From assembly GCA_027452045.1 (NCBI GenBank), contig DAIDHH010000133.1, positions 1 to 36,974 on the forward strand: a stretch of DNA of 36,974 bases, in the 5' to 3' direction. A program made the translations under genes and the position numbers. Under the pieces are notes generated by a model. That model was not told where the DNA came from. It saw only the letters and a list, made by a program, of their open reading frames with translations, and did not search any database. Shown here piece by piece: positions 13,491 through 34,993 of the stretch (its first letter is position 1; each line of letters begins with the position of its first letter). Source of the stretch: Gammaproteobacteria bacterium. GTDB taxonomy: Bacteria; Pseudomonadota; Gammaproteobacteria; Steroidobacterales; Steroidobacteraceae.

Positions 13491-13584
13491 CGCGGCGAGC
13501 CGCGAGAGCGAGCGGACGCCGCGGCCGGATCGGCGCGATCGGCGTCGCGCGAACGCATGCCTGTGTCGGGTTTGCACATACGCG

Positions 13585-18521: not shown

Positions 18522-18544
18522 CGTCTCCTCCCGGGATGTTGCGC

Positions 18545-19772: not shown

Positions 19773-21812
19773 TCAAAGATCTTTGACCAGCCTCAGGGCA
19801 TCGTAGATCGCCGCATGTGTGTTGCGCGAGGCGATTGCATCGCCGATACGAAAGAGCTGAAAGCTTCCACGGGGATTCGGCTGGGCGATCTGGGCAACTC
19901 CGGTGACGAGCCGCTCATGGTCGATTTCCCCGAGGTTCACGGACAGGGGCTTGAGCGCGAAATACAGCTCATCATTGGGGATCGTCCCATGATTGACCAC
20001 GATCTGATCGACGCGCCTTTCCTTGCGCACGCCGCCGTAATCGCTGCCGACGACGGCGAGCAGCCGCCCGCCCTCCCGAGCGACCCGTTCGAGACGGAAT
20101 GTCACCGTGAATGTGACCTCGAGTTTCTGCAGGCTGCGCATGTACGGGACAAGATTCATGCCCATGATTTCCGGCGCGAAATTGCGATCCGGTGTCATGA
20201 CTTCGAGTTTCGCGCCGCTCTCGGCGATGATCTCGGCGGCCTGAAGTCCGGTGTGATCGCCGGCATCATCGAACATGAGCACGTCGGAGCCTGGTGCGAC
20301 GCTCCCGGAGAGAATATCCCAGCTCGAAACCGTCAGAGCATTTCCCGACTCCAGGACTTCGGTGTGCGGCAGGCCCCCGGTGGCCACGATGACCACATCG
20401 GGACTCTCCGCGATCACCTCCTGCGCCTCGGTCCACGAATCGAAGCGAAAGCGCACTCCGCGCGCGGCGCACTGCGCCATCCTCCAGTCGATGATACCGA
20501 GCATCTCCCGGCGCCGGGGAGTGCGGGCGGCCAGCCGAATCTGGCCACCCGGCTGCGAGGCCGCCTCCAGCACGAGCACTTCGTGACCGCGCTCCGCCGC
20601 GACACGCGCCGCTTCGAGCCCGCCGGGCCCCGCGCCGACGATGACGACCTTGCGCCTCGCCGGGGCCGGCGCGATCTCGTGCGGCATCGCCAGCTCCCGG
20701 CCGGTAGCGGCGTTATGGATACAGTAGGCCGATCCGCCCTGGTAAATCCGGTCGAGGCAATAGTTGGCGCCGACGCAGGGTCGGATATCCGCTTCCCGCC
20801 CCCCGGCGAGCTTGCGCACGATGTGCGGATCGGCCATATGAGCGCGGGTCAGGCCCACCATATCCAACTTTCCGGAGGCGATCGCGTACCTTGCGGTGGC
20901 GATGTCCTGTATGCGCCCCGCATGAAAGGTCGGCAGACCGGTGGCTGCGCGGACCTCGCCCGCGAAATCAAGGTGTGGAGCGCTCGGCATGCCTTGGATG
21001 GGGATCACATCCGTCAGCCCGGCATCGGTATCAATGTGCCCGCGGATGACGTTGAGGAAGTCGACCATCCCGCTTTCCTTGAGGCGCCGGGAGATCTCGA
21101 GCCCTTCCTCGCGGGTCAGCCCGCCCGCGAGCAGCTCATCGGCCGTGTAGCGGATGCCGACGATGAACTCCGGACCCACGCGCTTGCGGATCGCGGCGAG
21201 CACCTCGAGGGTAAAGCGCATGCGGTTCTCGAGCGAGCCGCCGTAGGGGGAATGCAGATGATTGGTCAGGGGCGACCAGAACTGGTCCATGAGGTGCCCA
21301 TAGGCCTCGAGCTCGATGCCATCGAGCCCAGCACTGTGCATGCGCTGCGCAGCATCGGCGAAATCCGTCACGATCCGCCGGATATCCCACTCCTCGATCT
21401 TCTTGGGAAAGGCGCGGTGGGCAGCCTCCCTGCGGTGTGACGGCGAGACCACCGGCAGCCAGAAATTGCGGTCCCACCGGGTGCGGCGGCCGAGATGGGT
21501 GATCTGAATCATGACGGCGGCGCCGTGCTCGTGACAGGCATCCGCCAGGTCCCGCATCCACGGCACGACCTCATCTTTGTAGAGTAGAAGATTGTTGAAG
21601 GCTGGCGGGCTGTCGCGCGAGACCGCCGCGGAACCCGCCGTCATGGTCATCGCGATGCCGCCCTTGGCGCGCTCGACGTGGTAGGCCCGGTAGCGCGCCT
21701 TAGGCATGCCCTCCTCCGGATAGGCCGGCTCGTGCGCCGTCGTTATGATCCGATTGCGCAGCGTCAGGTGCTTCAGTTGGTAAGGCTGCAACAGTGGATC
21801 GATCGAAGTCAC
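19773..21812 (-). CDS. NADH:flavin oxidoreductase of the DgcA/N-methylproline demethylase type
   Basis: A 679-aa protein from GTG 21810-21812, preceded by AGGAAGAGA; the frame is open to 21887 but the extension is low-complexity and has no family match. Domains: an old-yellow-enzyme-like FMN barrel (1 to about 340), a Cys cluster (Cys346, Cys352, Cys364), then an FAD/NAD domain with GAGPGG at 393-398. The block YGHLMDQFWSPLTN (171-184) and RPCVGANYCLDRIYQGG are, from memory, characteristic of DgcA (dimethylglycine to sarcosine) and of N-methylproline demethylase of the stachydrine pathway. It would oxidatively remove an N-methyl group as formaldehyde. The TMADH family usually has four clustered Cys; I see three here. 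A conserved TTGCTAGGA motif lies 79 bp upstream. Confidence 0.88.
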   Translation of the reverse strand: MTSIDPLLQPYQLKHLTLRNRIITTAHEPAYPEEGMPKARYRAYHVERAKGGIAMTMTAGSAAVSRDSPPAFNNLLLYKDEVVPWMRDLADACHEHGAAVMIQITHLGRRTRWDRNFWLPVVSPSHRREAAHRAFPKKIEEWDIRRIVTDFADAAQRMHSAGLDGIELEAYGHLMDQFWSPLTNHLHSPYGGSLENRMRFTLEVLAAIRKRVGPEFIVGIRYTADELLAGGLTREEGLEISRRLKESGMVDFLNVIRGHIDTDAGLTDVIPIQGMPSAPHLDFAGEVRAATGLPTFHAGRIQDIATARYAIASGKLDMVGLTRAHMADPHIVRKLAGGREADIRPCVGANYCLDRIYQGGSAYCIHNAATGRELAMPHEIAPAPARRKVVIVGAGPGGLEAARVAAERGHEVLVLEAASQPGGQIRLAARTPRRREMLGIIDWRMAQCAARGVRFRFDSWTEAQEVIAESPDVVIVATGGLPHTEVLESGNALTVSSWDILSGSVAPGSDVLMFDDAGDHTGLQAAEIIAESGAKLEVMTPDRNFAPEIMGMNLVPYMRSLQKLEVTFTVTFRLERVAREGGRLLAVVGSDYGGVRKERRVDQIVVNHGTIPNDELYFALKPLSVNLGEIDHERLVTGVAQIAQPNPRGSFQLFRIGDAIASRNTHAAIYDALRLVKDL

Positions 21813-21891
21813 GCGTCTCTTCCTGAATGTGCCGACTCGGGGAGGACCATAAGCCGGCGGAGCGCGGCTCGGCCTTGGCTGTCGCACGCGA

Positions 21892-21908
21892 TTGCTAGGA
21901 AATCAGCT
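21892..21908 (+). promoter_or_regulatory. Regulon motif TTGCTAGGA, copy A
   Basis: One of three 17-bp copies in the window (consensus TTGCTAGGARWTYRRCY). The first nine bases are identical in all three. This copy lies 79 bp upstream of the DgcA-like GTG, in reverse orientation relative to that gene, as the other two are to theirs. It is also 92 bp upstream of the divergent TPR-sulfotransferase. Confidence 0.65.
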
Positions 21909-22000
21909 ATTTCGAGCCCGCGCCGCTTGCTCGTTCCCGGGCAGGCTCGACCGTGGGACCGACGCGCGGTATAAGATGCAATACATTCGGGATACCGCGT

Positions 22001-23479
22001 ATGACAGCTGCACCACCCGACCTCGAGGCCTTCCGCCTGATGCAGGCTGGTCGTCTCCCGGAGGCGCTGGTTCTGGCCGAGCGCGCGATCGCAGGCAAGA
22101 GCGCGTGCACATCGACTCACGGCCTGTTGGCGACGATCCTGGTGCGGCTCGGTCGTGTCTCCGAGGCGGACTTGCTCATCGAGAATGCGGCCAGACTCGA
22201 GCCGGTGAGCGCCGACGCCTGCGATGCCCTCGCTTACGTCTCGCTGCATCTTGGCCGCCACGAGCGCGCCAATGCGCTTTACAGACGTGCGACGGAGCTG
22301 GCGCCGGGCACCGGGCGGCATTGGTACAACCTCGCCTCCAGCGAGCGCAGCTTCGGCAGGCTCGCGGAAGCAGAAGCCGCCTGCGATCGGGCAGTCGCGC
22401 TCGATGACCGGGAGTATCGCAGCTACCTGCTGCGCTCGGAGCTTCGCGTCCAGAGGCCCGAGGCCAATCACGTAGCAGAGCTGCGCCAGGCACTCAGCCG
22501 GCCGGGACTCGAGGACCGGGCACGGGTGTTTCTCGGCTACGCCCTCGGAAAGGAACTCGATGACCTGCGGCAGTTCGATGCGGCGTTTCGCTGGTTCTCC
22601 GAGGCCGCGGGCACCCGCCGGCGACACCTCGCGTACGACGTGGGGAGCGATGAGCACAAGCTCCGGCGCATCGCGCAAGCATTCCCGGGAACGGCACCAC
22701 CGCCCGGCGGCGCAACAGAGGACTCCAGACGGTTCATTTTCATCGTCGGACTGCCCAGATCCGGCACCACCCTGCTCGAGCGCATCCTGACCAACCTGCC
22801 CGGCGTACATTCCAACGGAGAGACCGAGCACTTCGCGAGCGCGCTTCTCGGCGCATCCTTCTCGAGGGATGGTTCCGCAAGTGGCGCGCATCGGGACGTG
22901 TTCGAGCGCGCCGCCGCGGCCGATCCGGCGGTCGTGGCGGCGCGTTACGCGAATTTCGCGGCCGGCGAGCGCCGCGACGGATTCATCGTCGAGAAGCTGC
23001 CTATGAACTACCTCTATCTCGGCGCCATCCGTCGCGCCCTGCCTCGGGCGAGACTCCTCCTCGTAAGCCGGGCTCCGCTCGACAGCTGCTTCGCCATGTA
23101 CCGGACTTTGTTCGGAGCCGCATATCCGTTCAGTTACGACTTCGAGGATCTGGCGCGTTACTATGCGGCGTATCATCGGCTCATGGCGCACTGGCGAGCC
23201 GTGCTCGGAGAATCCATCCACGAGGTGTGTTACGAAGCGCTGGTACGCGATCCGGTCGGCACGGCTTCGGCAGCTGCGCGCTTCTGCGGCCTCGCGTGGA
23301 ACAACGACGCCATCGCGATCGAGAGCAACTCGGCGGTCTCGCTCACCGCCAGCGCCGCGCAGGTGCGGCGGCCGATCTACGGCACTTCCTCCGGACGCTG
23401 GCGCCATTACCATACCCATCTTGCCCCGCTCATCGAGGGACTGCGCCGCCGGCAGATCCGCCTGCCCGATGGCGCCTGA
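22001..23479 (+). CDS. TPR-repeat sulfotransferase family protein
   Basis: A 492-aa protein. The N-terminal half (about 1-200) holds degenerate TPR helices (LLATILVRLGRVSEADLLI, LAYVSLHLGRHERANALYRR, WYNLASSERSFGRLAEAEAA). The C-terminal half is a PAPS-type sulfotransferase with the 5'-phosphosulfate loop GLPRSGTTL at 250-258 and a likely 3'-phosphate-binding RAPLDSCFAMY. Start is ATG 22001; the frame is open to 21953 but the upstream ATG lacks support. A TATAAG box lies 25 bp before the ATG. This fused architecture is widespread next to TonB receptors in proteobacteria; the acceptor is unknown. It converges on the TonB receptor gene with a 7-bp gap. Confidence 0.88.
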   Translation: MTAAPPDLEAFRLMQAGRLPEALVLAERAIAGKSACTSTHGLLATILVRLGRVSEADLLIENAARLEPVSADACDALAYVSLHLGRHERANALYRRATELAPGTGRHWYNLASSERSFGRLAEAEAACDRAVALDDREYRSYLLRSELRVQRPEANHVAELRQALSRPGLEDRARVFLGYALGKELDDLRQFDAAFRWFSEAAGTRRRHLAYDVGSDEHKLRRIAQAFPGTAPPPGGATEDSRRFIFIVGLPRSGTTLLERILTNLPGVHSNGETEHFASALLGASFSRDGSASGAHRDVFERAAAADPAVVAARYANFAAGERRDGFIVEKLPMNYLYLGAIRRALPRARLLLVSRAPLDSCFAMYRTLFGAAYPFSYDFEDLARYYAAYHRLMAHWRAVLGESIHEVCYEALVRDPVGTASAAARFCGLAWNNDAIAIESNSAVSLTASAAQVRRPIYGTSSGRWRHYHTHLAPLIEGLRRRQIRLPDGA

Positions 23480-23486
23480 GCCGGGG

Positions 23487-26060
23487 TCAGAATATGTACG
23501 CCAGTCGTACCCCGAGCACGCGCGGCTGATTTACGACGTAGTCATTCGTAAGGTTGTCGAGCGCGACCAGTGTCGGGGGTGCGAGGATCTCCCGCTTGTC
23601 GGCGATGTTGGTAAGGTAAATCGTCGCTCGCCACGGGTCGTGGCTCACCGCGGCCGAGGCATTCATGACCAGGTAGCTCGATGACTGCTGGACACCCGTC
23701 GTGCCTTCGGCGCTCGTGAGCCCCATGACAACGGCGCTGCGGTAACTGCCGTTCAGCGAGAGCGACAGCGCATATCCGGGCTTGAGCATGCGCTGATAAT
23801 CGATGGCTGCCGTTATGCTGGTCTTCGGACTGCCCGGCAGTCGCTCGCCCGAAGTGCCTGTGATCTCCCCGGGAACGATGACACCCAGGCCGTTATTCGC
23901 CGGCAGCGAGAAATCGCTGGTCAGCTTGGCGTCGGCATACGAGACGCCCACGTCGTACGTCAGGCCGCGCAGGAGGAGCGGGCCGGAGCTCTCAAGCTCG
24001 AATCCCTTGGATTCCGCCGTGTTGGCGTTGTACACGGCGAGATTTCCGGACGGCAGACTTGATGATATCTGCGGCTTGTCCCATTTGACGTCGAACACAT
24101 CGAAAGCGTAGGTGAAGCCGTCGGCAAATCGCCCCTTGAAACCGCCCTCGTAGTTGTTCGTCCGGTCCGGCGCATAGCTCGCGAGCAGCGGGCTTTCCTC
24201 AAAGGGCCCGGTCAGCGGCACCGAATTGGCTCCGCCACGGCGGAATCCCTGCGACCACAGCGCATAAACGTACTGGTCCGCAGCGTACTCATAGGAGATG
24301 TCCACCTTGCCGATGTTCGTCGCGCTCGGGGCGCGGTGCGGGGTCGCCGGGATCAGGGTCGGGAACGCGAAATCCTCGTAGAGCTGCGCATCGGTGAATT
24401 GCTCCTCAAAGTGCCGGTAGCCACCGGTTACCTGGGCATGGGGGGCGAAATGCCATGTGAGATCTCCATAGACGGACTTTTCCTCGAAGCGCTGCGTATC
24501 GACCTGTGTGAAGACGATGTCGCCCGGCCCGCTGGTCACCATGCATTGCGGATACGTCGATCCATAGTAGACCGCGCCCGTGCAGCCCTGTGCGACCGAG
24601 CGCTCCGGCGAGCCCGGATTCGCAATGTTCCACGCGCCCGCGCGTGTCTCGTTGGCGTAGAACGCCCCTACGACGTAGTCGAACAGGTTCCAGAGCCGGG
24701 TCTTCGACACCAGGCGCAGCTCCTGCGTGAAGGCGTGAGCGTGGTCGTCGAACTCGTAGTCGTATACGAACCGGGGATTGGTCGGCGTGCCAGCGTAGTA
24801 CGGCAGATATGCACCGCCATCGACGCCTGCCAACCGGTAGGTGTCATCTTCGAGCAGCCCTCCAGTGGTGGTGCGGTACGAGCTCGTCGATGAGAGCGTG
24901 GCAAATCCGACGTCGTAGCTCATGTCGAGGCTGGTGAGATTGGTGTAGCGTGAGAATGGCTGATCAATCTGCGAGAACTCCTGGTAAGGACCGCCCGCTG
25001 GCAGGGTAACGGCCGGATCGAGGGGCGAGACCCCACCCGAAAAATCCGGATTGACCTGTGGCCCGCCATCGCCCCGCAGCCCCGTATGGAGGATTGCGAG
25101 CACGGCCTTGAAGGAGTCGAACGGCTTCCAGAGGAGCGCCGCACGTCCAGTGAAGGTCTTCTGCCAGTTCCAGTCCGCGCGGTCGGTATAGATGCCCGAG
25201 CTGCCCACCGGATCGGCGGGATTGGCCAGCTCGGGAATGCCGCTGAGTCCCGGACTCGTGCGCTTCAGCAACCCGTAGACGTTGATCCAGCCAGGCTGGT
25301 AGTCGTACTTGGCGGCTGCCCGGAATGCCATGGTGCCACCGACCGGCAGGTTGACGATGCCCTCCAGAGTGTAGCCCGTGCCGCTCGAGTGGGCCACGCT
25401 GTCCCCGCCCATCTCGACCTTGCCCGATACGGTGTGCAGCCGCGGATCGTTCGGAATCAGACGGATGGCGCCGCCGAGGGAGCCGGCGCCGTAGAGCGTA
25501 CCCTGCGGACCGCGCAGCACCTCGATGCGCTTCAGGTCAATGAGCTGGATGTACCCGCCGACGGGGGAGTTGCCGACGTAGACGCCAACCGGGCTCTGCT
25601 CGAAGCTGCGAAAGCCGCGGGTCGGCTCTCCAGTGGCGTTGATTCCGCGGATGATGGGCACCGTGGCGCCCGCCAGTCGCGAGCCGTAGTCAAACATGCT
25701 GAGGCCCGGCACCTCGTCGGCGAGTGAGGCGATGTCCGTGACGCCCGCGTTGGCGAGCTGTTGCGGTGTGATGACTGTCAGGCTGTAGGGAACGGACTCG
25801 ACCGTCTGCGGACGGCGGGTCGCGGTAACGGTAATCTCCTGGAGCGCGGCGGGAACCGGATTCACCTGCCCGGGAGGGTCAGTCCGGCTTGCCGGCACGG
25901 ACTGCTCGCCCGAGGCGGAACCGGCGGTCGCATCGGCCCAGGCCGCACTCGACACGCCGTAGAGGGCGAGGCATACCGCCGCGCCGACAGTGGTCATCGC
26001 CCGGCGCCGCACCCGAAAGGCGGCTCTCGCACCGCCGCGTCGCACACCGAATTCTTTCAT
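23487..26060 (-). CDS. TonB-dependent outer membrane receptor
   Basis: A complete 857-aa receptor. Seen: an Arg-rich then hydrophobic signal peptide (about 1-42, ending AAWADA), a TonB-box-like LQEITVTATRR (about 73-83), plug motifs including RIEVLRGPQGTLYGAGSLGG, a long beta-barrel, and a C-terminal aromatic residue (LAYIF) as expected for outer membrane insertion. GGGGGC precedes the ATG. It probably imports a ligand too large or scarce for porins. A copy of the TTGCTAGGA motif lies 113 bp upstream, linking it to the DgcA-like operon and to MttB-3, so its ligand is likely the carrier or precursor of the methylated amine (inference). Confidence 0.95.
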   Translation of the reverse strand: MKEFGVRRGGARAAFRVRRRAMTTVGAAVCLALYGVSSAAWADATAGSASGEQSVPASRTDPPGQVNPVPAALQEITVTATRRPQTVESVPYSLTVITPQQLANAGVTDIASLADEVPGLSMFDYGSRLAGATVPIIRGINATGEPTRGFRSFEQSPVGVYVGNSPVGGYIQLIDLKRIEVLRGPQGTLYGAGSLGGAIRLIPNDPRLHTVSGKVEMGGDSVAHSSGTGYTLEGIVNLPVGGTMAFRAAAKYDYQPGWINVYGLLKRTSPGLSGIPELANPADPVGSSGIYTDRADWNWQKTFTGRAALLWKPFDSFKAVLAILHTGLRGDGGPQVNPDFSGGVSPLDPAVTLPAGGPYQEFSQIDQPFSRYTNLTSLDMSYDVGFATLSSTSSYRTTTGGLLEDDTYRLAGVDGGAYLPYYAGTPTNPRFVYDYEFDDHAHAFTQELRLVSKTRLWNLFDYVVGAFYANETRAGAWNIANPGSPERSVAQGCTGAVYYGSTYPQCMVTSGPGDIVFTQVDTQRFEEKSVYGDLTWHFAPHAQVTGGYRHFEEQFTDAQLYEDFAFPTLIPATPHRAPSATNIGKVDISYEYAADQYVYALWSQGFRRGGANSVPLTGPFEESPLLASYAPDRTNNYEGGFKGRFADGFTYAFDVFDVKWDKPQISSSLPSGNLAVYNANTAESKGFELESSGPLLLRGLTYDVGVSYADAKLTSDFSLPANNGLGVIVPGEITGTSGERLPGSPKTSITAAIDYQRMLKPGYALSLSLNGSYRSAVVMGLTSAEGTTGVQQSSSYLVMNASAAVSHDPWRATIYLTNIADKREILAPPTLVALDNLTNDYVVNQPRVLGVRLAYIF

Positions 26061-26173
26061 CGCTTTTGCCCCCGAGTTTTATACCGAGACTTGACGCCTG
26101 GATATCCTGCCCGGGCCGCTTCGGCAAACGATACGCGCACGGTTGGCGCGTAACCTTCGATGGCGCAGTGGAT

Positions 26174-26190
26174 TTGCTAGGAATTTGACC
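26174..26190 (+). promoter_or_regulatory. Regulon motif TTGCTAGGA, copy B
   Basis: TTGCTAGGAATTTGACC, 113 bp upstream of the TonB receptor start and in reverse orientation to that gene. It lies in the 250-bp gap (26061-26310) between the receptor and the end of the AraC gene. Apart from this motif and a TATAAA near 26079-26084 (minus strand), I see nothing else in that gap. Confidence 0.65.
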
Positions 26191-26310
26191 GCAAAGGGCG
26201 CGTGGACCCCGCAGCTGTGCAGCGGCGCGCAGCCCACTCCCGCTTCCTTGCCCCTTGGCGGTGCACGCCTGCCGCGTTGCGCGCCGGAGTGGTGCGATGG
26301 GCCAGTTGGG

Positions 26311-27390
26311 TCAGCGCGATCTGCCGCGCCTCACGTCGATCGGCCGCATGCCGAAGTGGCGTCGAAAGGCGGTGGTGAAGGAGGTGGGATGAGCGTAGCC
26401 AATCGCCTCGCCAGCCTGCTCGACCGAGCACCCCTGGTCGCGGATCAGGTTCAGCGCGTGACGCATACGGCAGCGCAGACTGAAATCGAAGATCGTTTCC
26501 CCGAAGACGGCCTTGAAGCCCTTCGTGAGAATCGACTTCGACATGCCAACCGTGCGGGCGAGCTTGTCGATCGTCGGCGCGGGCACGAACTGGCGCATGA
26601 GTATGGCGCGCGCCGCATGCAGGCACTTGAGCTCACGGTCGCTGTACTGCTCCGCCGGTGCCCCGGTGAGCGCCGACAGACCCGCCACCGCATGACACAC
26701 GAGCTCCAGGGCAAGCGCCTCGGTATACACGAGCGCGAGCGGTCCGATGTGCTGATTGTCGATGAGTCGCGTGGCGACCTCGAGCGTCTGCGAGGACAGC
26801 GGATGTTGGCAGTAGTTGATCTTCTGCGCGGAGCTCGAAACGAATGCCTTGAGCGGCTCGGGGAACTCCACGCCCGCGGGCAGGAAGGTCTGCGCCAGAA
26901 ACTCCGGCCGCATGCTGACGATGATGAACTGCTCGCGAGCCCGTGGTGCCGTCCACTCGCTGATGTCGACGCCCTTGGGCTGTGACCAGACCAGCAGCGA
27001 TGGGCGGTTCCACCTCACCGGCTCGGTGCGACTCACCGCGAGGGTCAGATCGCCGGAGATCTTGAAGTCGAACTGCACAAGTCCGTCGCCCGGCACCAGC
27101 TCGACCCGAGGGTCCTTGTAGGCGAAGTTGGCGACCACAACGTAGATCTCGTCCCGGATACGGGTGAATTCCCAATAGCCCTCGCCTTCCTCCGGGGCGA
27201 CGGCCACGCGCGCACCAATCACATCCCGCGTCGGGTGGCGCAGGATCCGCTCAACATGCGGGGCGCGCTCGAGGCTCGCGAACGCATCAGCGAGTGTATG
27301 ACCAGGTCCGGCCAGTATTGCCCGGAAAAGCCCCTGGTTGCCGGACCAGCCGTCATGCCCTTCCTCAGGCTTATGGTTTCCCGAGCTCAC
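26311..27390 (-). CDS. AraC-family transcriptional regulator
   Basis: A 359-aa protein from GTG 27388-27390, which has a GGAG 11 bp upstream; the frame is also open to a TTG at 27477. The N-terminal about 250 residues form a ligand-binding region I do not recognise. The C-terminal about 100 residues are a double HTH: TIDKLARTVGMSKSILTKGF, VFGETIFDFSLRCRMRHAL and AIGYAHPTSFTTAFRRHFGM. The first half of that HTH plus the SxxKGFK pattern is usual for the family. It is transcribed away from MttB-3, with TTGCTAGGA copy C between them, and lies next to the TonB receptor that has copy B. It is the best candidate regulator of those sites. Confidence 0.9.
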   Translation of the reverse strand: MSSGNHKPEEGHDGWSGNQGLFRAILAGPGHTLADAFASLERAPHVERILRHPTRDVIGARVAVAPEEGEGYWEFTRIRDEIYVVVANFAYKDPRVELVPGDGLVQFDFKISGDLTLAVSRTEPVRWNRPSLLVWSQPKGVDISEWTAPRAREQFIIVSMRPEFLAQTFLPAGVEFPEPLKAFVSSSAQKINYCQHPLSSQTLEVATRLIDNQHIGPLALVYTEALALELVCHAVAGLSALTGAPAEQYSDRELKCLHAARAILMRQFVPAPTIDKLARTVGMSKSILTKGFKAVFGETIFDFSLRCRMRHALNLIRDQGCSVEQAGEAIGYAHPTSFTTAFRRHFGMRPIDVRRGRSR

Positions 27391-27562
27391 GATGGTCGAT
27401 TCTCCGCCCCGGGATGATCTGAAATTTTCCCCGGAGGCATGCTGGCGATCGGCATACTGCGCGGCAAATTGCCGCAACTGTCCGCAGCGCGCAAGCCCCG
27501 CGTCGCCGCACTGTCATGCCTGAGCCTGACCTCGGGTCGGCACGCAGTTCGATGGCAATCGT

Positions 27563-27579
27563 GGCCGAACTCCTAGCAA
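27563..27579 (-). promoter_or_regulatory. Regulon motif TTGCTAGGA, copy C
   Basis: Read on the minus strand: TTGCTAGGAGTTCGGCC. It lies 106 bp upstream of the MttB-3 ATG and reverse to that gene, like the other two copies. It is within the 295-bp divergent region between the AraC gene and MttB-3 and may also serve autoregulation. Confidence 0.65.
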
Positions 27580-27685
27580 AGGCATGCTTGAGCCAAGCCC
27601 CGCGGCGCGGCTGGCACGCTATCGTCTTGCATGCATCTCGCATATCTTGACACGTTGCGATGGCAACCTATGGCGGAGAAAACCC

Positions 27686-29236
27686 ATGGCCGATGAGACG
27701 GGATCGCCGCGCAGGGTTCGAGCGAGCGCGCGCGATGCGCGCAAGGCCCAGCGTGCGGTCCGCCCGGCGGGCCCGGCGTACATCACGCGCGCCATTCCCC
27801 CCTACGAGCTGCTCTCGCCGCAGGGGCTCGAAGCCATCGAGCGGCACGCCGATCGGCTGCTCGAGGAAATCGGCCTCGAGATTCGGGGCGACGCAGAGGC
27901 CATTCGGCTCTGGCAACAGGCGGGGGCGACCCTCTCGGACGATTGGCGCGTCCACGTGCCGGCGGGACTGGCTCGCGAAATCGTTCGCCGCACGGCCCCG
28001 GGCGAGTTCGTCCAGCATGCGCGCAACCCCGCTCACAGCGTGCGCATCGGCGGCCCGAATACCGTGCTCGCGCCGGCATATGGATCGCCGTTCGTATCCG
28101 ATCTCGATCGCGGCAGGCGCTACGGGACGATTGAGGATTTCCGCAATTTCGTGAAGCTGGCTTATCTTTCGCCCTGGCTGCACCACTCGGGCGGTACGGT
28201 GTGCGAGCCCGTCGACGTCCCTGTCGCCAAGCGGCACCTGGACATGCTGTACGCCCACATGCGCTATTCAGACAAGCCGTTCATGGGATCCGTCACGACC
28301 GCAGCTCGGGCGGCGGACTCGATCGACATGTGCCGCATCCTGTTTGGAAAGGAGTTCGTCGAGAGCCATTGCGTCATTCTGGGCAACGTCAACGTCAATT
28401 CCCCTCTCGTGCTCGATGGCGAAGCGAGCCGTGTCATCAGAACGTACGCTGCAGCCAACCAGGCCCCGGTCTGCGTGCCCTTCATCCTTGGGGGCGCAAT
28501 GGGGCCGGTCACCACGGCGGGGGCACTCGCGCAGTGCTTCGCCGAGGCCATGTTCTGCGTCGCGCTCGGCCAGCTCGAGCGCCCCGGCTCTCCGGCCATT
28601 CTTGGCAATTTCCTGTCGTCGATGTCATTGCGCAGCGGCGCCCCGACGTTCGGCACTCCGGAGCCGGCCCTGGCCTACTTCGCCATCGGCCAGCTCGCCC
28701 GCAGGCTCGGTGTCCCACTGCGCTGCGGAGGGAATCTTTGCGCATCCAAGGTGCCAGACGCACAGGCGGCCTACGAGAGCGCGAACTCGATGTGGCCTGC
28801 ATTCCTCGCAGGGGCGAACTTCATACTGCATTCGGCAGGCTGGCTCGAAGGGGCCCTGGTCATGTCCTACGAAAAGTTCATCATGGACGTGGATCAGTGC
28901 GGCGCCCTGCACACCCTTGCCCGGGGATTGGCGCTCGATGAGAACGCCTTCGCGCTCGCGGCCTTCCAAGAGGTCGGGCCGGGGAAACACTTTCTCGGAT
29001 CCCGGCACACCCTGGCCAATTACGAGACCGCTTTCTACGATTTCGATCTCTCTGACAACAATTCCTTCGAGCAGTGGAGCGCCGAGGGGGCGCAGGATCA
29101 CCTGGCGCGCGCAAACAAGCGGTGGAAGGCGATGCTCGAGCGCTACGAGGCGCCGCCGCTGGATGCGGCGAAGGACGAGGCGCTCCGGGAGTTCATCGAG
29201 CTCAGAAAAGCCGCTCTGCCGGACGATATGGCCTGA
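27686..29236 (+). CDS. MttB-family (COG5598) corrinoid methyltransferase, paralogue MttB-3, non-pyrrolysine
   Basis: A 516-aa protein from ATG 27686, preceded by GGCGGAG; the frame is open to 27584 without a better start. Seen: PYELLSPQGLEAIERHADRL, GSPFVSDLDRGRRYGTIEDF, WLHHSGGTVCEPVDVPV, ILGGAMGPVTTAGALA and SDNNSFEQWSAEG. From memory this is the form common in Rhodobacterales and Rhizobiales next to the same corrinoid/DUF1638/MetF set. It is clearly more distant from MttB-1 and MttB-2 than those are from each other in sequence pattern. No UAG is present. It is the most likely primary partner of the corrinoid protein at 30933, with only an MFS gene between. Confidence 0.93.
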   Translation: MADETGSPRRVRASARDARKAQRAVRPAGPAYITRAIPPYELLSPQGLEAIERHADRLLEEIGLEIRGDAEAIRLWQQAGATLSDDWRVHVPAGLAREIVRRTAPGEFVQHARNPAHSVRIGGPNTVLAPAYGSPFVSDLDRGRRYGTIEDFRNFVKLAYLSPWLHHSGGTVCEPVDVPVAKRHLDMLYAHMRYSDKPFMGSVTTAARAADSIDMCRILFGKEFVESHCVILGNVNVNSPLVLDGEASRVIRTYAAANQAPVCVPFILGGAMGPVTTAGALAQCFAEAMFCVALGQLERPGSPAILGNFLSSMSLRSGAPTFGTPEPALAYFAIGQLARRLGVPLRCGGNLCASKVPDAQAAYESANSMWPAFLAGANFILHSAGWLEGALVMSYEKFIMDVDQCGALHTLARGLALDENAFALAAFQEVGPGKHFLGSRHTLANYETAFYDFDLSDNNSFEQWSAEGAQDHLARANKRWKAMLERYEAPPLDAAKDEALREFIELRKAALPDDMA

Positions 29237-29328: not shown

Positions 29329-29461
29329 TTGCTGAATAACGACACGGTGTGCAATGCCCGCACCGCGCCGTGGTAACATGCGCGTGATCCGGTCAACCGC
29401 GAGCAGCGGACTGTTCTGTTCCGGCGGTGCTCTCCGCTACGCCTCCGACGAGCCATCCATC

Positions 29462-30811
29462 GTGAGTTCCCCACACGAAGGCAACGACCTTCGCCCCCCT
29501 CCAAGTGCGCTTTCGGCGACCTGGCAGCTGCTGCTCGGCGTGGGCATCCTCATGCTCGGGGCGGGTCTGCAGAGCACCGAGATCAGCCTGCGCGCCACGC
29601 TGGAGGGATTCGCCGCGCCGGTCACCGGGATCATCATGTCGTGCTACTACCTCGGCTACCTGGTCGGGACCGCGGCGGGGCCCCATCTGGTGCGGCGCGT
29701 CGGGCACATCCGGGTATTCGCCGCGATGGCTGCGGTCGCCTCCGCAGCCATCCTGGTCCAGGGCATTTTCGTGCATCCTCTCTCCTGGGCGCTGCTGCGC
29801 GGGGTCTCCGGCACGAGCTTCGCCGCGCTTTATGTCGTGATCGAGAGCTGGCTCAACGGTTGCTCCACCCGCGCCACCCGCGGGCGGCTGTTCGCCCTGT
29901 ACATGGTCGTGCTCTATGTCGGCCTCGGCGCCGCCCAGTTCCTGCTGATCCCCGCCGACCCGCGCACGGCGACGCCTTTCATGCTCGCCGGGGCATCGAT
30001 TTCGCTCGCCATGGTGCCGATCCTCGTTGTCGCGCAGCGGGCACCGGAGATCACGGTGCCGCGCAAGGTGAGCTACCGGGAGCTCTATCGCGACTCGCCG
30101 CTCGGTGTCGTCGCGGTCACCATTGCCGGCATGGTGACCTCGAGCGTCTACTCCATGGGACCGGTCTATGCGCAGCTTTCCGGCCTCGGAACCTCCGGCG
30201 TGGCGACCTTCATGGGCGTGAGCGTCATGGCCGCCGTTCTCGGCCAGTACCCGATCGGCCGCTTGTCCGATCGCATGGATCGGCGCACGGTCATCGCCGG
30301 CGTATGTGTCATGGCGGCCGTGTGCGCAGCGGCATTGGCCACGTTTCGCCACCTTCCGCAGATTGTCTTCCTCGCCCTGACCGCCTCGTTCAGCGTCATG
30401 GCGTTCACGATCTACTCCCTCGCGGTATCGCACGTGAACGACCATCTGGAGTCGTCCCAGATGGTCGCTGCCAGCGGCGCGCTCCTGCGGCTGAACGGGC
30501 TCGGTGCCGCGATCAGCCCCGTGCTGCTTGGGGCCCTCATCGCCGCCTATGGCCCGAGATCCTACTTTGCGACCCTCGCCTCGCTCACGATCCTGCTCAG
30601 CGCGTTCGACCTGTGGCGTAAGCGTCGCAGGGAGGCCGTGCCCGCCGAGCTCAAAGGCCGGTTCATCGCCGCCGGGCCACAGGGGCCGGGCCCCCGCATT
30701 GCGACCAGTTCTCTGGGCTCTGCGAACGCTGCGCCCCCACCGCAGGGCGCCCCGCCCGCCCCCTCGCAGGACCCCTTGGACGAGCGCACCGCCGGGGATG
30801 CGGGGCATTGA
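29462..30811 (+). CDS. MFS transporter (YcaD-like)
   Basis: About 449 aa if the GTG at 29462 is used, which leaves 17 residues before the first membrane segment (WQLLLGVGILMLGAGLQ). ATGs at 29378 and 29354 are open in the same frame; none has a good ribosome-binding site, so the start is uncertain. The pattern of 12 segments with a GRLSDRMDRR loop and EGFAAPVTGIIMSCYYLGY near the N-terminus resembles the YcaD-like MFS group. The tail (about 40 residues) is Pro/Ala-rich and hydrophilic. It lies between MttB-3 and the corrinoid operon and is preceded by the 30-bp repeat. Probably import of the methylated substrate or export of the demethylated product. Confidence 0.85.
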   Translation: MSSPHEGNDLRPPPSALSATWQLLLGVGILMLGAGLQSTEISLRATLEGFAAPVTGIIMSCYYLGYLVGTAAGPHLVRRVGHIRVFAAMAAVASAAILVQGIFVHPLSWALLRGVSGTSFAALYVVIESWLNGCSTRATRGRLFALYMVVLYVGLGAAQFLLIPADPRTATPFMLAGASISLAMVPILVVAQRAPEITVPRKVSYRELYRDSPLGVVAVTIAGMVTSSVYSMGPVYAQLSGLGTSGVATFMGVSVMAAVLGQYPIGRLSDRMDRRTVIAGVCVMAAVCAAALATFRHLPQIVFLALTASFSVMAFTIYSLAVSHVNDHLESSQMVAASGALLRLNGLGAAISPVLLGALIAAYGPRSYFATLASLTILLSAFDLWRKRRREAVPAELKGRFIAAGPQGPGPRIATSSLGSANAAPPPQGAPPAPSQDPLDERTAGDAGH

Positions 30812-30932
30812 GCACCCGGGAAGCACTTGACTGGCGGGATGTCGTCTATGGGCACGTGGCCGTCGCAATTCAACCAGCTTTCCGGCCCCTCTCCATTACC
30901 CTTTCAACCGCACGGCCCTATCAGGAGCTAGC

Positions 30933-31634
30933 ATGAGTGACGACAGCGACTTCAATCTGCGTGACCTGAACGATCAAGAGCTGACCGAGCAGGTTCACGA
31001 CGATCTGTACAACGGGCTGAAGGACGAGGTCGTCGAAGCGACCAATCTCTTCCTCGAGCGCGGCTGGGGCGCGGAGAGGGTACTGAACGATGCCTTGGTC
31101 GAAGGCATGCGCATCGTCGGCATCGACTTCCGGGACGGCATCCTGTTCGTTCCGGAGGTGCTGCTCGCGGCGAACGCCATGAAGGCGGGGATGGAGATCC
31201 TGCGCCCGCTCCTTGCCGAGACCGGCGCCGAGCCCATCGGCAAGGTCGTGATCGGCACCGTCAAGGGCGACATCCACGACATCGGCAAGAACCTCGTGTC
31301 GATGATGCTGGAAGGCGCCGGGTTCGAGGTCATCGACCTCGGGATCAACAATCCGGTCGAGAAGTACCTCGAGGCTCTCGAGAAGCACAAGCCCGACATT
31401 CTCGGCATGTCCGCGCTCCTGACCACCACCATGCCCTACATGAAGGTGGTGATCGACAAGATGCGCGAGCTCGACATCCGCAAGGACTTCATCGTGCTGG
31501 TCGGCGGAGCGCCGCTCAACGAGGAGTTCGGCAAGGCCGTGGGGGCGGATGCGTATTGCCGCGACGCGGCGATTGCGGTCGAGACCGCCAAGAGCCTGAT
31601 CGCCGCCCGCCGCGCGGCGCGCCACGCCGCCTGA
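30933..31634 (+). CDS. Corrinoid (B12-binding) methyltransferase protein, MtbC/MtgC-like
   Basis: A 233-aa protein with AGGAG before the ATG. Residues about 10-95 form the B12-binding helical cap; about 100-225 form the Rossmann B12-binding domain with the lower-ligand motif GDIHDIGKN (Asp113-x-His115-x-x-Gly118), plus the later MSALLTTTM and VLVGGAPLN segments. It accepts the methyl group from a MttB-family protein on Co(I) and donates it to THF through the pterin methyltransferase encoded downstream. It is the only corrinoid protein in the window, so it probably serves all three MttB paralogues unless others lie elsewhere. It is the first gene of a tight seven-gene operon. Confidence 0.95.
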   Translation: MSDDSDFNLRDLNDQELTEQVHDDLYNGLKDEVVEATNLFLERGWGAERVLNDALVEGMRIVGIDFRDGILFVPEVLLAANAMKAGMEILRPLLAETGAEPIGKVVIGTVKGDIHDIGKNLVSMMLEGAGFEVIDLGINNPVEKYLEALEKHKPDILGMSALLTTTMPYMKVVIDKMRELDIRKDFIVLVGGAPLNEEFGKAVGADAYCRDAAIAVETAKSLIAARRAARHAA

Positions 31635-31649
31635 GGCCGATGCGCCAGC

Positions 31650-32267
31650 ATGGACTTGCGCGGCAGCGTTCTCGTCATCGCCTGTGGTGCGCTTGCCCGC
31701 GAGATCCACGCGCTTCGGCAAGCCAATGGGTGGGCGTTTGACGTCAAGTGCTTGGGCCCCGAGCTGCACAATCGACCGGAGCGCATAGCGCCGGCGGTAC
31801 GGGCCGAAATCCGCGCCAATAAGGCAGAGTATCGGACGATCTTCGTCGCCTATGCCGAGTGCGGCACCATGGGACAGCTCGATCAGGTGCTCGCGGAGGA
31901 AGGCGTGGAGCGCCTGCCCGGCGCGCATTGTTATGAGTTCTTCGCCGGTGCGCCGACCTTCGCCGCACTCGCGGACGCTGAGCCGGGCACCTTCTACCTG
32001 ACAGACTTCCTCACCCGCCACTTCGAGCGCCTCGTGATCGGCGGACTCGGCATCGACCGGCACCCCGAGCTCGCCGAGACGTATTTCCGCAACTACCGCC
32101 GGGTGGTTTATCTGTCGCAGGCACGCTCGGACGAACTCCTCGAGCAGGCGCGGAAGATCGCATCGCGGCTCGGTCTTTCATTCGAACATCGTTTCACGGG
32201 ATACGGGGAGCTTAAGACCCGTCTCGCCACCCTCGCACGAGGCACAGCGCCGGCATGGCAAACCTGA
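31650..32267 (+). CDS. DUF1638-domain protein of the corrinoid/C1 operon
   Basis: A 205-aa protein of unknown function. The segments SVLVIACGALAREI, VKCLGPELHNRPERIAPAV, VAYAECGTMGQLDQVLAEEG and GAHCYEFFAG fit DUF1638. Cys12, Cys34, His40, Cys71 and Cys94 lie in these blocks and could bind a metal (inference). The family co-occurs with corrinoid methyltransferases in methanogens and alphaproteobacteria. Its position between the corrinoid protein and MetV suggests a role in corrinoid or Fe-S handling. The 3' end overlaps the next gene by 13 bp. Confidence 0.85.
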   Translation: MDLRGSVLVIACGALAREIHALRQANGWAFDVKCLGPELHNRPERIAPAVRAEIRANKAEYRTIFVAYAECGTMGQLDQVLAEEGVERLPGAHCYEFFAGAPTFAALADAEPGTFYLTDFLTRHFERLVIGGLGIDRHPELAETYFRNYRRVVYLSQARSDELLEQARKIASRLGLSFEHRFTGYGELKTRLATLARGTAPAWQT

Positions 32268-32593
32268 TCATCATCTCCTGGCGCAACATCCCCGCCCAGG
32301 TGATCGTCAAGCGCGCTCGCGAGACGGCCAAGGTGCAACTCTCCCAGCGCTTCCAGGAAGCGGTGGACCGGGCCGCCATGCGCGCCGGCCGCGGCACCTC
32401 CAACGCCTACCTCGCCGACTGGCAGCGCAGCGCGCCGCGCCCCTGCGGAGAGGACCTTCAGGGCGAGGCGGCCGCCGAGGCGGCCCGGATCGAGGCGGCC
32501 TACAGCGACGAGCGCCTGGAAGCGCTCGTGCGCTCCAAGGGAGTGGATGCCTCTTCAGACACCCCCTTCTCTCCCGAGCCAAGCGAGGCTTGA
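32255..32593 (+). CDS. Small 'virulence factor' family protein
   Basis: A 112-aa protein. The first about 60 residues (LIIISWRNIPAQVIVKRARE, FQEAVDRAAMRAG) match a small family usually called conserved virulence factor, a name carried over from automatic annotation. The rest is Ala/Glu-rich. In alphaproteobacteria it typically sits in the same C1 operon between DUF1638 and the methyl-THF reductase genes, so a C1 role is more likely than virulence. It overlaps the DUF1638 gene by 13 bp and touches the next start (TGATG). Confidence 0.8.
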   Translation: MANLIIISWRNIPAQVIVKRARETAKVQLSQRFQEAVDRAAMRAGRGTSNAYLADWQRSAPRPCGEDLQGEAAAEAARIEAAYSDERLEALVRSKGVDASSDTPFSPEPSEA

Positions 32594-33051
32594 TGTACGC
32601 CGTACGACTCTGGTCGGTGCGCCATGCGCGCGGCCTGAACGCCTTCTACCGTCGCTTCGAGAACGCTCTCGCAACGCTCCATCCGCTCTTCAAACGTATG
32701 GGCTACGAGCGTCTGGAGCGTCCGGTGGCGGCCGTCGAGCACACGATCAAAGGCTTTCTCTTTGATTGCAGGATGTGCGGCCAGTGCGTGCTCTCCTCCA
32801 CCGGCATGTCCTGCCCGATGAACTGCCCCAAGCAGCTACGCAACGGGCCCTGCGGCGGGGTGCGCGACAACGGCCACTGCGAAGTGCGGCCGGAGATGAA
32901 GTGCGTGTGGCACCAGGCGGTCACCGGGAGTGCGCGTATCGACGGCGGCCGCGAGGCGCTGAGCCAGGTGCAGCCTGCCGTCGATCGGCGTTTGCAGGGT
33001 CGCTCCTCGTGGCTGCGCGTCACGCGCGAGCGTGCGGGAGAGTCGGCGTGA
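32593..33051 (+). CDS. MetV-like Cys-rich methylenetetrahydrofolate reductase partner (MTHFR_C domain)
   Basis: A 152-aa protein from ATG 32593, which overlaps the previous stop by one base. The Cys-rich centre has Cys59, 62, 65, 74, 78, 87, 96 and 104 in DCRMCGQCVLSS, MSCPMNCPKQL, NGPCGGV, NGHCE and MKCVW. This is the MTHFR C-terminal domain found as MetV in acetogens and other anaerobes, where it forms a complex with MetF and can carry metal or Fe-S sites. A stand-alone MetV beside MetF in this operon suggests a MetFV-type complex that oxidises methyl-THF with an electron acceptor other than NAD(P). Confidence 0.85.
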   Translation: MYAVRLWSVRHARGLNAFYRRFENALATLHPLFKRMGYERLERPVAAVEHTIKGFLFDCRMCGQCVLSSTGMSCPMNCPKQLRNGPCGGVRDNGHCEVRPEMKCVWHQAVTGSARIDGGREALSQVQPAVDRRLQGRSSWLRVTRERAGESA

Positions 33052-34070
33052 TCTTCGAGGACGAACCGGTTCCGGGCTACCCGTTGCCCATTCTCCCCGG
33101 CCACACGTCCCCGGGGCGTCTCGAGCGGATCCTGCGCGCGGGCCAGTTCGCGGTCACCGCCGAGCTTGCCCCGCCCGATTCGGCGGACCCCGATGAAGTC
33201 TTCCAGCGGGCCAAGATCTTCGACGGCTACGTCGATGCCATCAACGCCACCGACGGGAGCGGAGCCAACTGTCACATGTCGAGTGTCGCGGTGTGCGCGC
33301 TCCTTACCCGCCTGGGCTACGCCCTCGTGATGCAGATCTCCTGCCGCGACAAGAACCGCATCGCCATCCAGGGCGACATCCTGGGGGCAGCCGCCATGGG
33401 CGTGTGCAACATCCTGTGCCTCACCGGCGATGGCGTACAGGCCGGGGACCATCCACAGGCCCTCCCGGTGTTCGATCTCGATTGCATGTCGCTGCTCACG
33501 ACGGCGCGGACGCTGCGCGACGAGCACCGGTTCCTGAGCGGCCGCAAGCTCACCTATTCTCCCCGGGTGTTCCTCGGGGCCGCATCCAACCCCTTCGGCA
33601 AGCCACTCGAGTGGCGGGCCGATCGGCTCGCCAAGAAAGTCGCCGCCGGCGCCCAGTTCGTGCAGACGCAGTACTGCTATGACGTCCCGCTGCTCAAAAC
33701 CTTCATGCAGCGTGTCGAGGACCTCGGGCTCCTCGGCAAGGTATTCATCCTCGTTGGCGTCGGCCCCTTGCGCTCGGCGAAGACCGCCGAGTGGATGCGC
33801 GCGCACGTTCCGGGACTACACATCCCCGATGCCATCGTAAAGCGCCTTGCCGGCGCCCAGGACCAGGCGCGCGAGGGCAGGAACCTCTGCGTCGAGCTCA
33901 TTCAGCAGATCCACGAAGTGAAGGGTGTGGCCGGCGTGCATCTGATGGCCTATCGCCAGGAAGAAAGCGTTCCCGACATCATCGATCGCTCCGGAGTGCT
34001 TCAGGGACGCATCCCCTGGTACCCGGGTCGCGATCCTCAACGCAGCCCACAAAGAGTAGCCGCATCATGA
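33048..34070 (+). CDS. metF: Methylenetetrahydrofolate reductase, MetF family
   Basis: A 340-aa TIM-barrel flavoprotein starting at GTG 33048, which overlaps the preceding stop (GTGA) and has GGGAG upstream. The frame is open to 32766, but that would overlap the MetV-like gene. Seen: the N-terminal AVTAELAPPDSADP with Glu39 at the usual catalytic-acid position, DAINATDGSGANCHMSS, LQISCRDKNR-type (MQISCRDKNR) and ILCLTGDG. In a demethylation operon it would run in reverse, from methyl-THF to methylene-THF. Lacking a fused C-terminal regulatory domain, it is of bacterial MetF type and likely pairs with the MetV-like protein. Confidence 0.95.
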   Translation: MIFEDEPVPGYPLPILPGHTSPGRLERILRAGQFAVTAELAPPDSADPDEVFQRAKIFDGYVDAINATDGSGANCHMSSVAVCALLTRLGYALVMQISCRDKNRIAIQGDILGAAAMGVCNILCLTGDGVQAGDHPQALPVFDLDCMSLLTTARTLRDEHRFLSGRKLTYSPRVFLGAASNPFGKPLEWRADRLAKKVAAGAQFVQTQYCYDVPLLKTFMQRVEDLGLLGKVFILVGVGPLRSAKTAEWMRAHVPGLHIPDAIVKRLAGAQDQAREGRNLCVELIQQIHEVKGVAGVHLMAYRQEESVPDIIDRSGVLQGRIPWYPGRDPQRSPQRVAAS

Positions 34071-34993
34071 CCGACACCGTCCTCAGCTCAGCCACCCGCG
34101 AAGTCATCATCGGCTTCGAGCGCCCCTTCGTCATGATCGGAGAGCGCATCAACCCCACGGGCAGGAAGATCCTGGCGGCGGAGATGGCCGCGGGCGATTA
34201 TTCGCGGGTCGAAGCGGACGCGCGCGCTCAGGTGGTCGCTGGAGCGCACATGCTCGACGTCAATGCCGGCATTCCGCTCGCGGATGAACCGGCGATTCTT
34301 GCCAAGGCCGTGCAGCTGGTGCAGTCGGTGACCGACGTGCCGCTCTCGATCGACTCCTCCATCGTGGCGGCCCTCGAGGCGGGCCTCGCCGTCTACAAGG
34401 GCAAGGCGCTGGTGAACTCCGTCACCGGCGAGGAGGAACGCCTCGAATCGGTGCTGCCGCTCGTGAAGAAGTACGGCGCGGCGGTGGTCGCCATTTCCAA
34501 CGATGAGACCGGGATCTCCGAGGACCCGGACGTACGCTTCGAGGTGGCGAAGAAGATCGTGCACCGCGCCGCCGATCATGGCATCCCGGCCTGCGACGTC
34601 GTGGTCGACCCGCTCGTCATGCCGATCGGGGCCATCAACAAGGCGGGCGTGCAGGTAATGCACCTGCTCAAGCGCCTGCGCAGCGAGCTCAAGGTGAACA
34701 CCACCTGCGGCGCCTCCAACATCAGCTTCGGACTGCCGGCGCGCGAGGGCATTACCGCCGCCTTCCTCATCTCCGCGATGGGCGCCGGCATGACCTCCGC
34801 GATCATGAACCCGCTGCACACCGAGATCGTGCGGGCCATCATGGGGGCGGATGTCATGATGGGACATGACCCGGACTGCGCGCGCTGGATCCGCCGCTTC
34901 CGCGAAGTACCGGCCCCTGGAGCGCCAGGGGCTCCCGGTGAGGGCGCTGCGCGTGGCCGGCGCGAGGGAGGACATCGCCGCCGTGTCAGCTGA
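34067..34993 (+). CDS. Methyltetrahydrofolate:corrinoid methyltransferase (pterin-binding, AcsE/MtgA-like)
   Basis: A 308-aa protein from ATG 34067, overlapping the metF stop as ATGA. The frame open to 33791 only reads through metF. Seen: pterin-binding-domain motifs GERINPTG (25-32), DVNAG (64-68), SIDSS (94-98), VNSVTGEEERLES and NTTCGASNISFGLP. The last about 25 residues are a Pro/Gly/Arg-rich tail. It moves the methyl group between the corrinoid protein and THF, here presumably from methyl-Co(III) to THF, linking MttB chemistry to MetF. It lacks its own B12 domain, as expected. Confidence 0.95.
   Translation: MTDTVLSSATREVIIGFERPFVMIGERINPTGRKILAAEMAAGDYSRVEADARAQVVAGAHMLDVNAGIPLADEPAILAKAVQLVQSVTDVPLSIDSSIVAALEAGLAVYKGKALVNSVTGEEERLESVLPLVKKYGAAVVAISNDETGISEDPDVRFEVAKKIVHRAADHGIPACDVVVDPLVMPIGAINKAGVQVMHLLKRLRSELKVNTTCGASNISFGLPAREGITAAFLISAMGAGMTSAIMNPLHTEIVRAIMGADVMMGHDPDCARWIRRFREVPAPGAPGAPGEGAARGRREGGHRRRVS

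What the first reader, a model, noticed from the sequence alone, without database searches (positions are those of the whole stretch)
21892..27579. A 17-bp motif (TTGCTAGGA core) at three promoters defines a candidate AraC regulon
Copies at 21892-21908, 26174-26190 and 27563-27579 share nine identical leading bases and a degenerate second half (consensus TTGCTAGGARWTYRRCY). Each lies 79-113 bp from the start codon of its gene (DgcA-like operon, TonB receptor, MttB-3), and all have the same orientation relative to that gene. I found no fourth copy by eye. The motif ties uptake, methyl transfer and oxidative demethylation together and sits next to an AraC gene.
Basis: seen in the sequence. Interest (0 to 1): 0.8.

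Follow-up and report, generated by a model that had tools for sequence, protein, structure and literature searches.

The report
AraC-type promoter motif regulating demethylation genes
The three copies are real, conserved promoter sites that very probably put a methyl-transfer and demethylation pathway under one AraC-type regulator; this is a new but ordinary kind of bacterial gene switch.

Summary
TTGCTAGGA occurs exactly three times in the window, at the stated places, and only four times in the 3.72-Mb, 75%-complete genome. The fourth lies between an AraC paralogue and an MttB gene. Counting the window, the core stands at the MttB3 promoter in 7 of 7 loci, the TonB promoter in 8 of 8 (two with one mismatch) and the DgcA promoter in 6 of 11. 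In the genus the 17-mer goes with the AraC protein: 8 of 8 AraC+ and 0 of 29 AraC- genomes. Toward the gene it reads GGCCGAAYTCCTAGCAA, then CNAAG 13-14 bases on, then a TATNNT -10 box 39-40 bases after the 17-mer in 32 of 33 curated sites. This fits an AraC-type activator with a strong distal and a weak proximal half-site, as published for MtlR and AraC; the weak half-site is poorly supported in the window's own group. Further targets in relatives (Rieske oxygenase, dimethylglycine-dehydrogenase-like protein, S15-type hydrolases) fit a quaternary-amine demethylation regulon. Binding is untested. New member of a known kind.

The parts
21892..21908 (-). distal AraC half-site (17-mer) of the DgcA-operon promoter; in gene direction AGCTGATTTCCTAGCAA
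21873..21878 (-). proximal CCAAGG element of the DgcA promoter
21846..21851 (-). predicted -10 box TATGGT of the DgcA promoter
19773..21812 (-). DgcA-like FMN/FAD oxidoreductase, first gene of a predicted operon with MFS (18545-19768) and an S15-type hydrolase (16515-18680)
   Evidence: Pfam PF00724 and others; operon inferred
26174..26190 (-). distal half-site of the TonB-receptor promoter; in gene direction GGTCAAATTCCTAGCAA
26154..26159 (-). proximal CGAAGG element of the TonB promoter
26128..26133 (-). predicted -10 box TATCGT of the TonB promoter
23487..26060 (-). TonB-dependent receptor
   Evidence: Pfam Plug
26311..27390 (-). AraC-family regulator, predicted to bind the motif: strand-rich N-terminal domain and C-terminal double HTH
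   Evidence: co-occurrence
27563..27579 (+). distal half-site of the MttB3 promoter; in gene direction GGCCGAACTCCTAGCAA
27593..27598 (+). proximal CCAAGC element of the MttB3 promoter
27620..27625 (+). predicted -10 box TATCGT of the MttB3 promoter
27686..29236 (+). MttB3, MttB-family methyltransferase with an open frame throughout (no in-frame stop to be read as pyrrolysine)
   Evidence: Pfam MTTB; PDB relatives 4yyc, 2qne, 9yce
29354..34993 (+). same-strand genes after MttB3, possibly read from the same promoter: MFS, corrinoid protein (30933-31634), DUF1638, PF13769, MTHFR (32766-34070), pterin-binding methyltransferase (33791-34993)
   Evidence: Pfam; operon extent inferred

Best explanation
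The 17-bp motif is the strong, promoter-distal half-site of the AraC-family activator encoded at 26311-27390. One monomer reads it with its two helix-turn-helix units; the nearly invariant TCCTAGCAA would be the promoter-proximal half of that site and GGYYGAAY the distal half. If the -10 box starts at -12, the 17-mer covers about -69 to -53. A second, weaker half-site, whose only conserved part is CNAAG near -39 to -34, lies against the place of the -35 box, which is not recognisable. With inducer, probably a quaternary amine or a derivative of it, the second monomer would occupy the weak site and help sigma/RNA polymerase to use the TATNNT -10 box, switching on the TonB receptor, the DgcA operon, and MttB3 with the methyl-transfer genes behind it. 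Shown by sequence: the site, its conservation, the fixed spacing, the co-occurrence with the AraC lineage. Inferred: binding, activation, dimer occupancy, inducer, operon extent.
For: Genome: 4 of 4 exact TTGCTAGGA copies at linked promoters. Promoters aligned, window included: core exact in 7 of 7 MttB3; exact in 6 of 8 TonB and 2 with one mismatch; exact in 5 of 11 DgcA and 1 with one mismatch. Genus: TTGCTAGGANNYNNRSY in 8 of 8 genomes with an AraC of 54% identity or more and 0 of 29 others (Fisher p 2.6e-8). Composite promoter pattern in 10 of 11 genomes with this AraC (E<=1e-170) and 1 of 47 others (p 2.3e-9). A TATNNT starts 39-40 nt after the 17-mer in 32 of 33 curated sites, against 0 of 4,950 positions upstream of the sites. 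AAG stands 15 or 16 nt after the 17-mer in 32 of 33. No TTGACA-like -35 in the four promoters printed. Paralogous AraC proteins (55-58% identity) have the same core beside MttB1-like genes. Base -7 is G in 25 of 26 sites of the window's AraC group and C in 15 of 15 of the paralogue group, while the first HTH differs (SKSILTKGFK in the window protein against SETSLKRGFK in most paralogues). Published model with the same layout: MtlR, strong upstream and weak downstream half-site (PMC4514859, passages).
Against: No binding or expression data. The DgcA promoter has no core in 3 of 11 loci and two mismatches in 2 more. Two further TonB loci were not aligned: L081 (gene begins at the contig end) and L082 (gene fragment, no copy beside it). 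Paralogues at 54-55% (L073/L092, L074/L095) and more distant ones (32-49%, L094, L096, L131-L137) have no exact copy in the loci fetched. G010 carries an AraC of this lineage (54%) but not the composite promoter, and its one 17-mer match is not at a linked gene. A repeat of the whole 17-mer at +21 is strong in the paralogue group (mean 10.0 of 17 identities, but 3 distinct 17-mers only) and weak in the window's group (5.15 of 17, not the top shift), so the proximal half-site rests mainly on CNAAG. Raw counts hardly exceed the reversed control: 24 against 18 for the 17-mer in the 8 AraC+ genomes. The composite pattern is loose: 63 of 396 genomes of the order match it. The sites are not independent (16 distinct 17-mers among 26) and were curated by eye.
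Confidence: 0.82

Rival explanations
1. The sites are real but bound by another regulator, for example the GbdR-like AraC at 12462-13577 of the same window.
For: That protein is also AraC-type, its best NCBIfam match is the betaine regulator GbdR (E 6.6e-89, 298.5 bits, below the cut-off of 480), and it lies about 8 kb from the first site. Six genomes with the motif (G000, G003, G006, G010, G017, G021) have such a protein too.
Against: GbdR-like proteins at E<=1e-60 occur in 21 of 60 genomes; 12 of these are genus genomes without any 17-mer match (G001, G002, G009, G014, G015, G016, G018, G024, G026, G027, G031, G032), and none is found at that threshold in G005 and G013, which have the motif. 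Published CdhR half-sites are GGTCGC, called very similar to those of GbdR (PMC5806209, passages), unlike this core. In L081, L082 and L086 the site sits beside an AraC of the 26311 lineage.
Confidence: 0.06
2. The regulator acts mainly as a single-site (monomer or class I) activator, or as a repressor, and CNAAG belongs to the core promoter rather than to a second half-site.
For: A 21-bp direct repeat is weak in the window's AraC group. Another promoter class beside the AraC paralogues has the 17-mer with TATGAT 49-51 nt away, about one helical turn further, and no AAG at the usual place in 7 of 8.
Against: Constant distance to the -10 box, no recognisable -35 box in the four promoters printed, and CNAAG just upstream of -35 fit activation with contact at -35; the +21 repeat is clear in the paralogue group.
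Confidence: 0.25
3. Chance repeat or mobile-element remnant.
For: Allowing one mismatch the window shows no clear excess over shuffles.
Against: Genome-wide rarity, conservation at orthologous promoters while flanks diverge, same strand and same spacing.
Confidence: 0.02

Closest known systems
MtlR / PmtlE of Pseudomonas fluorescens (AraC/XylS family)
   Same: Strong upstream half-site about -72 to -58 and weak downstream one about -50 to -36, upstream of the -35 region; the weak site is needed for induction by mannitol (PMC4514859, abstract and passages).
   Different: Other sequence (AGTGC-N5-AGTAT), other genes (mannitol); here the proximal element is reduced to CNAAG in the window's group.
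E. coli AraC at araBAD (I1/I2)
   Same: [quoted passage not shown] our inferred pair centres near -50.
   Different: No CRP site or looping site was looked for; other target genes, and no Pfam-named N-terminal domain.
GbdR / CdhR of Pseudomonas aeruginosa
   Same: AraC-family regulators of quaternary-amine catabolism (PMC5806209, passages).
   Different: They belong to the glutamine-amidotransferase-1-like subfamily; CdhR uses GGTCGC half-sites with a 15-bp spacer and is called class I. The 26311 protein has no DJ-1/PfpI domain and another site.

Membership tests
AraC/XylS regulator family | C-terminal domain with two helix-turn-helix motifs (HTH_18, HTH_AraC) | tested here: met
   Pfam HTH_18 E 2.1e-19 and HTH_AraC E 2.5e-10; predicted helices 251-357; Foldseek to full-length AraC-family structures E about 1e-9 with low TM-scores (0.24-0.32 of the query) and rmsd about 15
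AraC/XylS regulator family | N-terminal ligand/dimerisation domain | tested here: inconclusive
   A strand-rich N-domain followed by helices is predicted, but Pfam names no N-terminal domain and no ligand is known
AraC/MtlR-type promoter (strong distal, weak proximal half-site) | 17-bp-scale distal site at a fixed distance from -10 | tested here: met
   32 of 33 curated sites with TATNNT 39-40 nt after the 17-mer
AraC/MtlR-type promoter (strong distal, weak proximal half-site) | second direct-repeat half-site about 21-22 bp downstream, against -35 | tested here: inconclusive
   +21 is the best shift in the paralogue group (10.0 of 17), weak in the window's group (5.15 of 17); CNAAG position conserved
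AraC/MtlR-type promoter (strong distal, weak proximal half-site) | inducer-dependent binding and activation | not testable with these tools
   needs gel shift, footprint or reporter
GbdR/CdhR (GATase-1-like AraC regulators) | DJ-1/PfpI N-terminal domain | tested here: not met
   no Pfam match for it in the 26311-27390 protein; present in the other AraC at 12462-13577

The most novel reading that the evidence does not exclude
A previously undescribed regulatory code for non-pyrrolysine MttB methyltransferases in uncultured gammaproteobacteria (aerobic by inference, from the oxygenase and oxidases in the clusters): one AraC lineage co-ordinates outer-membrane uptake, corrinoid-dependent demethylation and oxidative demethylation. 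Duplicated AraC-MttB pairs have split the code by changing the first HTH and base -7 of the site while keeping the TCCTAGCAA half, so the site type would predict which MttB paralogue handles which amine.
Probability: 0.3. Interest if true: 0.6.

Novelty: new member of a known kind. Interest (0 to 1): 0.45.

Why it matters
It gives a promoter signature with which the targets of an unstudied MttB pathway can be found without culture. It links genes of unknown substrate (TonB receptor, S15-type hydrolase, DgcA-like enzyme, Rieske oxygenase in a relative) to one demethylation pathway, and it offers a small natural test of how duplicated AraC proteins change specificity in one half-site. A search for papers holding AraC, MttB and glycine betaine found one paper, a salt-stress transcriptome with a single AraC mention (search listing only). 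A search with four terms (trimethylamine methyltransferase, AraC family, TonB-dependent receptor, Steroidobacter) found no paper holding three of them. The library is open-access PubMed Central only, so earlier work elsewhere cannot be excluded.

Tried and rejected
Looked for the motif near the 54-55% paralogues (L092, L095), the 63-64% paralogues (L083, L084) and the family-level relatives (L131-L137): no exact copy, except at the MttB3 promoter of L084. Considered the GbdR-like AraC as the binder: rejected on co-occurrence. Counting with mismatches genome-wide: 278 hits at up to 2 mismatches against 572 for the reversed control, uninformative. Composite pattern over the order: 63 of 396 genomes match; for example G041 has 11 hits against 8 of the reversed control, and the matched letters look AT-rich. 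Within the genus it gives 24 hits against 13 for the reversed control over 58 genomes, so the AraC+/AraC- contrast (23 against 1 hits; reversed control 2 against 11) and the places carry the argument, not the raw count. Three genomes with only weak AraC matches (G308, G030, G020, E 1e-40 to 1e-29) were counted as AraC-. The 17-mer pattern: 24 hits against 18 of the reversed control in the 8 AraC+ genomes, 0 against 15 in the 29 others, and 4 hits in 3 of 23 genomes outside the genus. Searching papers for the 9-mer returned 216 papers; none of the 20 titles listed is about a bacterial promoter.

Rows dropped before the spacing counts: one search scanned 29 sources (the window and 28 loci). I dropped 3 of 35 exact hits (L139, L147, L152, no linked gene or promoter elements) and 24 of 33 one-mismatch hits, nearly all because they were not at a linked promoter; one of them (L085 14841) does lie by an S15-type gene, behind a kept site. 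The 8 sites beside the 5' side of the AraC paralogues were kept as a separate class. That leaves 33 sites (26 + 7). The curation was by eye. Of the 33 loci, 22 were scanned; the other 11 (L097-L107, low identity or short matches) were not.

Full report
Observation. Read toward the genes, the three end in TCCTAGCAA, 79, 113 and 106 bp from the start codons. With one mismatch the window shows no clear excess (5 against 2.67); for the exact word a Markov model expects 0.009 copies, a post-hoc figure.

Whole genome. In the 3.72-Mb, 75%-complete genome the 9-mer occurs four times: the three window copies and one on contig C196. The fourth lies between an AraC paralogue (57% identity) and an MttB1-like gene, with the same orientation to the gene. 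In the 98%-complete relative G003 it occurs eight times: six at linked promoters, and two elsewhere (C38, C70) that lack the other promoter elements.

Relatives. AraC relatives were sought in 60 genomes and in a named collection (33 loci); 22 of those 33 (L075-L096) were scanned. Window included, the core stands at the MttB3 promoter in 7 of 7 loci aligned; at the TonB promoter in 8 of 8, two of them with one mismatch; and at the DgcA promoter in 5 of 11 exactly, 1 with one mismatch, 2 with two, 3 without. TonB genes of L081 (at a contig end) and L082 (a fragment, no copy beside it) were not aligned. The site moves with the genes: in L081 and L082 it stands upstream of DgcA next to AraC. New places fit the same theme: at two S15-type hydrolase genes in L085, at the 5' end of a Rieske-oxygenase frame followed by an S15-type hydrolase in G005 (L138), and upstream of a DAO/GCV_T (dimethylglycine-dehydrogenase-like) gene in L091, divergent from the AraC paralogue.

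Co-occurrence. Among 37 genus genomes the 17-mer pattern is in 8 of 8 with an AraC of 54% identity or more and 0 of 29 without; one of the 24 hits, the only one in G010, is not at a linked gene (L139). The composite pattern (core, AAG, TATNRT) is in 10 of 11 genomes with the AraC at E<=1e-170 and 1 of 47 others. Raw counts against the reversed control are much less impressive and are given under Tried and rejected. The GbdR-like second AraC does not follow the motif.

Promoter anatomy. In gene direction: 17-mer, 13-14 nt, CNAAG (then G or C in the window, A in some relatives), about 20 nt, TATNNT. The -10 box starts 39 or 40 nt after the 17-mer in 32 of 33 curated sites; none of 4,950 positions upstream of the sites begins a TATNNT. 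No -35-like hexamer is seen in the four promoters printed. The 33 sites hold 16 + 3 distinct 17-mers in the two groups, so they are not independent. At the 5' side of the AraC paralogues a second class of 8 sites has TATGAT 49-51 nt away, about one turn of helix further.

Mechanism. If the -10 box starts at -12, the 17-mer covers about -69 to -53, and CNAAG lies near -39 to -34. A half-site pair at this place is the layout published for MtlR (strong upstream, weak downstream) and AraC (direct repeats partly overlapping -35). A second copy at +21 is clear for the paralogue group (10.0 of 17 identities) but weak for the window's group (5.15 of 17). The likeliest model is constitutive occupancy of the strong site and inducer-dependent occupancy of the weak one; this is inference. 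Between the two AraC groups, base -7 of the site (G in 25 of 26 against C in 15 of 15) changes together with the first HTH (SKSILTKGFK in the window protein, SETSLKRGFK in most paralogues), while TCCTAGCAA and much of the second HTH are kept. This suggests, but does not prove, that the second HTH reads the constant half.

Protein. The protein has HTH_18/HTH_AraC at its C-terminus and a strand-rich N-terminal domain that Pfam does not name; the AlphaFold model has mean pLDDT 83 and its best Foldseek matches are full-length AraC-family proteins (CsvR, ToxT, Rns, CuxR), with low TM-scores. It is not of the GbdR/CdhR type.

Pathway. MttB3 resembles solved MttB-family proteins, among them one named glycine betaine methyltransferase (9yce; also 4yyc, 2qne). 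The genes after it on the same strand encode an MFS transporter, a corrinoid protein, DUF1638, PF13769, MTHFR and a pterin-binding methyltransferase, so the MttB3 promoter may drive a full methyl-transfer branch. The true amine and the inducer are unknown. The loci L075-L095 come from assembled (gamma)proteobacterial genomes without species names (record titles).

Papers. Passages of PMC4514859, PMC7408454, PMC5806209 and PMC12478193 were seen; others only as search listings.

Verdict. A sound observation and a sound interpretation, here extended to a promoter model. It is a new AraC regulon of a known kind; its value lies in the pathway that it marks.

Noticed in passing
window 30933-34993: Corrinoid protein, DUF1638, PF13769, MTHFR and pterin-binding methyltransferase follow MttB3 on the same strand: a likely methyl-transfer branch, without a motif copy of its own.
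   Followed up: partly
window 12462-13577: A second, GbdR-like AraC regulator (DJ-1/PfpI + HTH_18) lies beside MttB2; the motif does not follow it across genomes.
   Followed up: yes
L086 2121, L091 9686, L093 9632, L067 9162 and 4 more: A second promoter class with the same half-site but TATGAT 49-51 nt away, on the 5' side of the AraC paralogue (the divergent gene was identified in L091 only: DAO/GCV_T).
   Followed up: partly
L138 3718 and 7879 (G005 contig C131): Two motif promoters: one at the 5' end of a Rieske-oxygenase frame before an S15-type hydrolase, one pointing off the contig end to an unseen gene.
   Followed up: partly
L088 8031-9558: The MttB1-like gene matches in two pieces and the stretch holds a stop codon: frameshift or assembly error.
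   Followed up: no
L092 and L095, region between AraC and MFS1: These 54-55% paralogues lack the motif; conserved stretches such as CACTATCNGCTAATTT upstream of MFS1 may be their own site or promoter.
   Followed up: no
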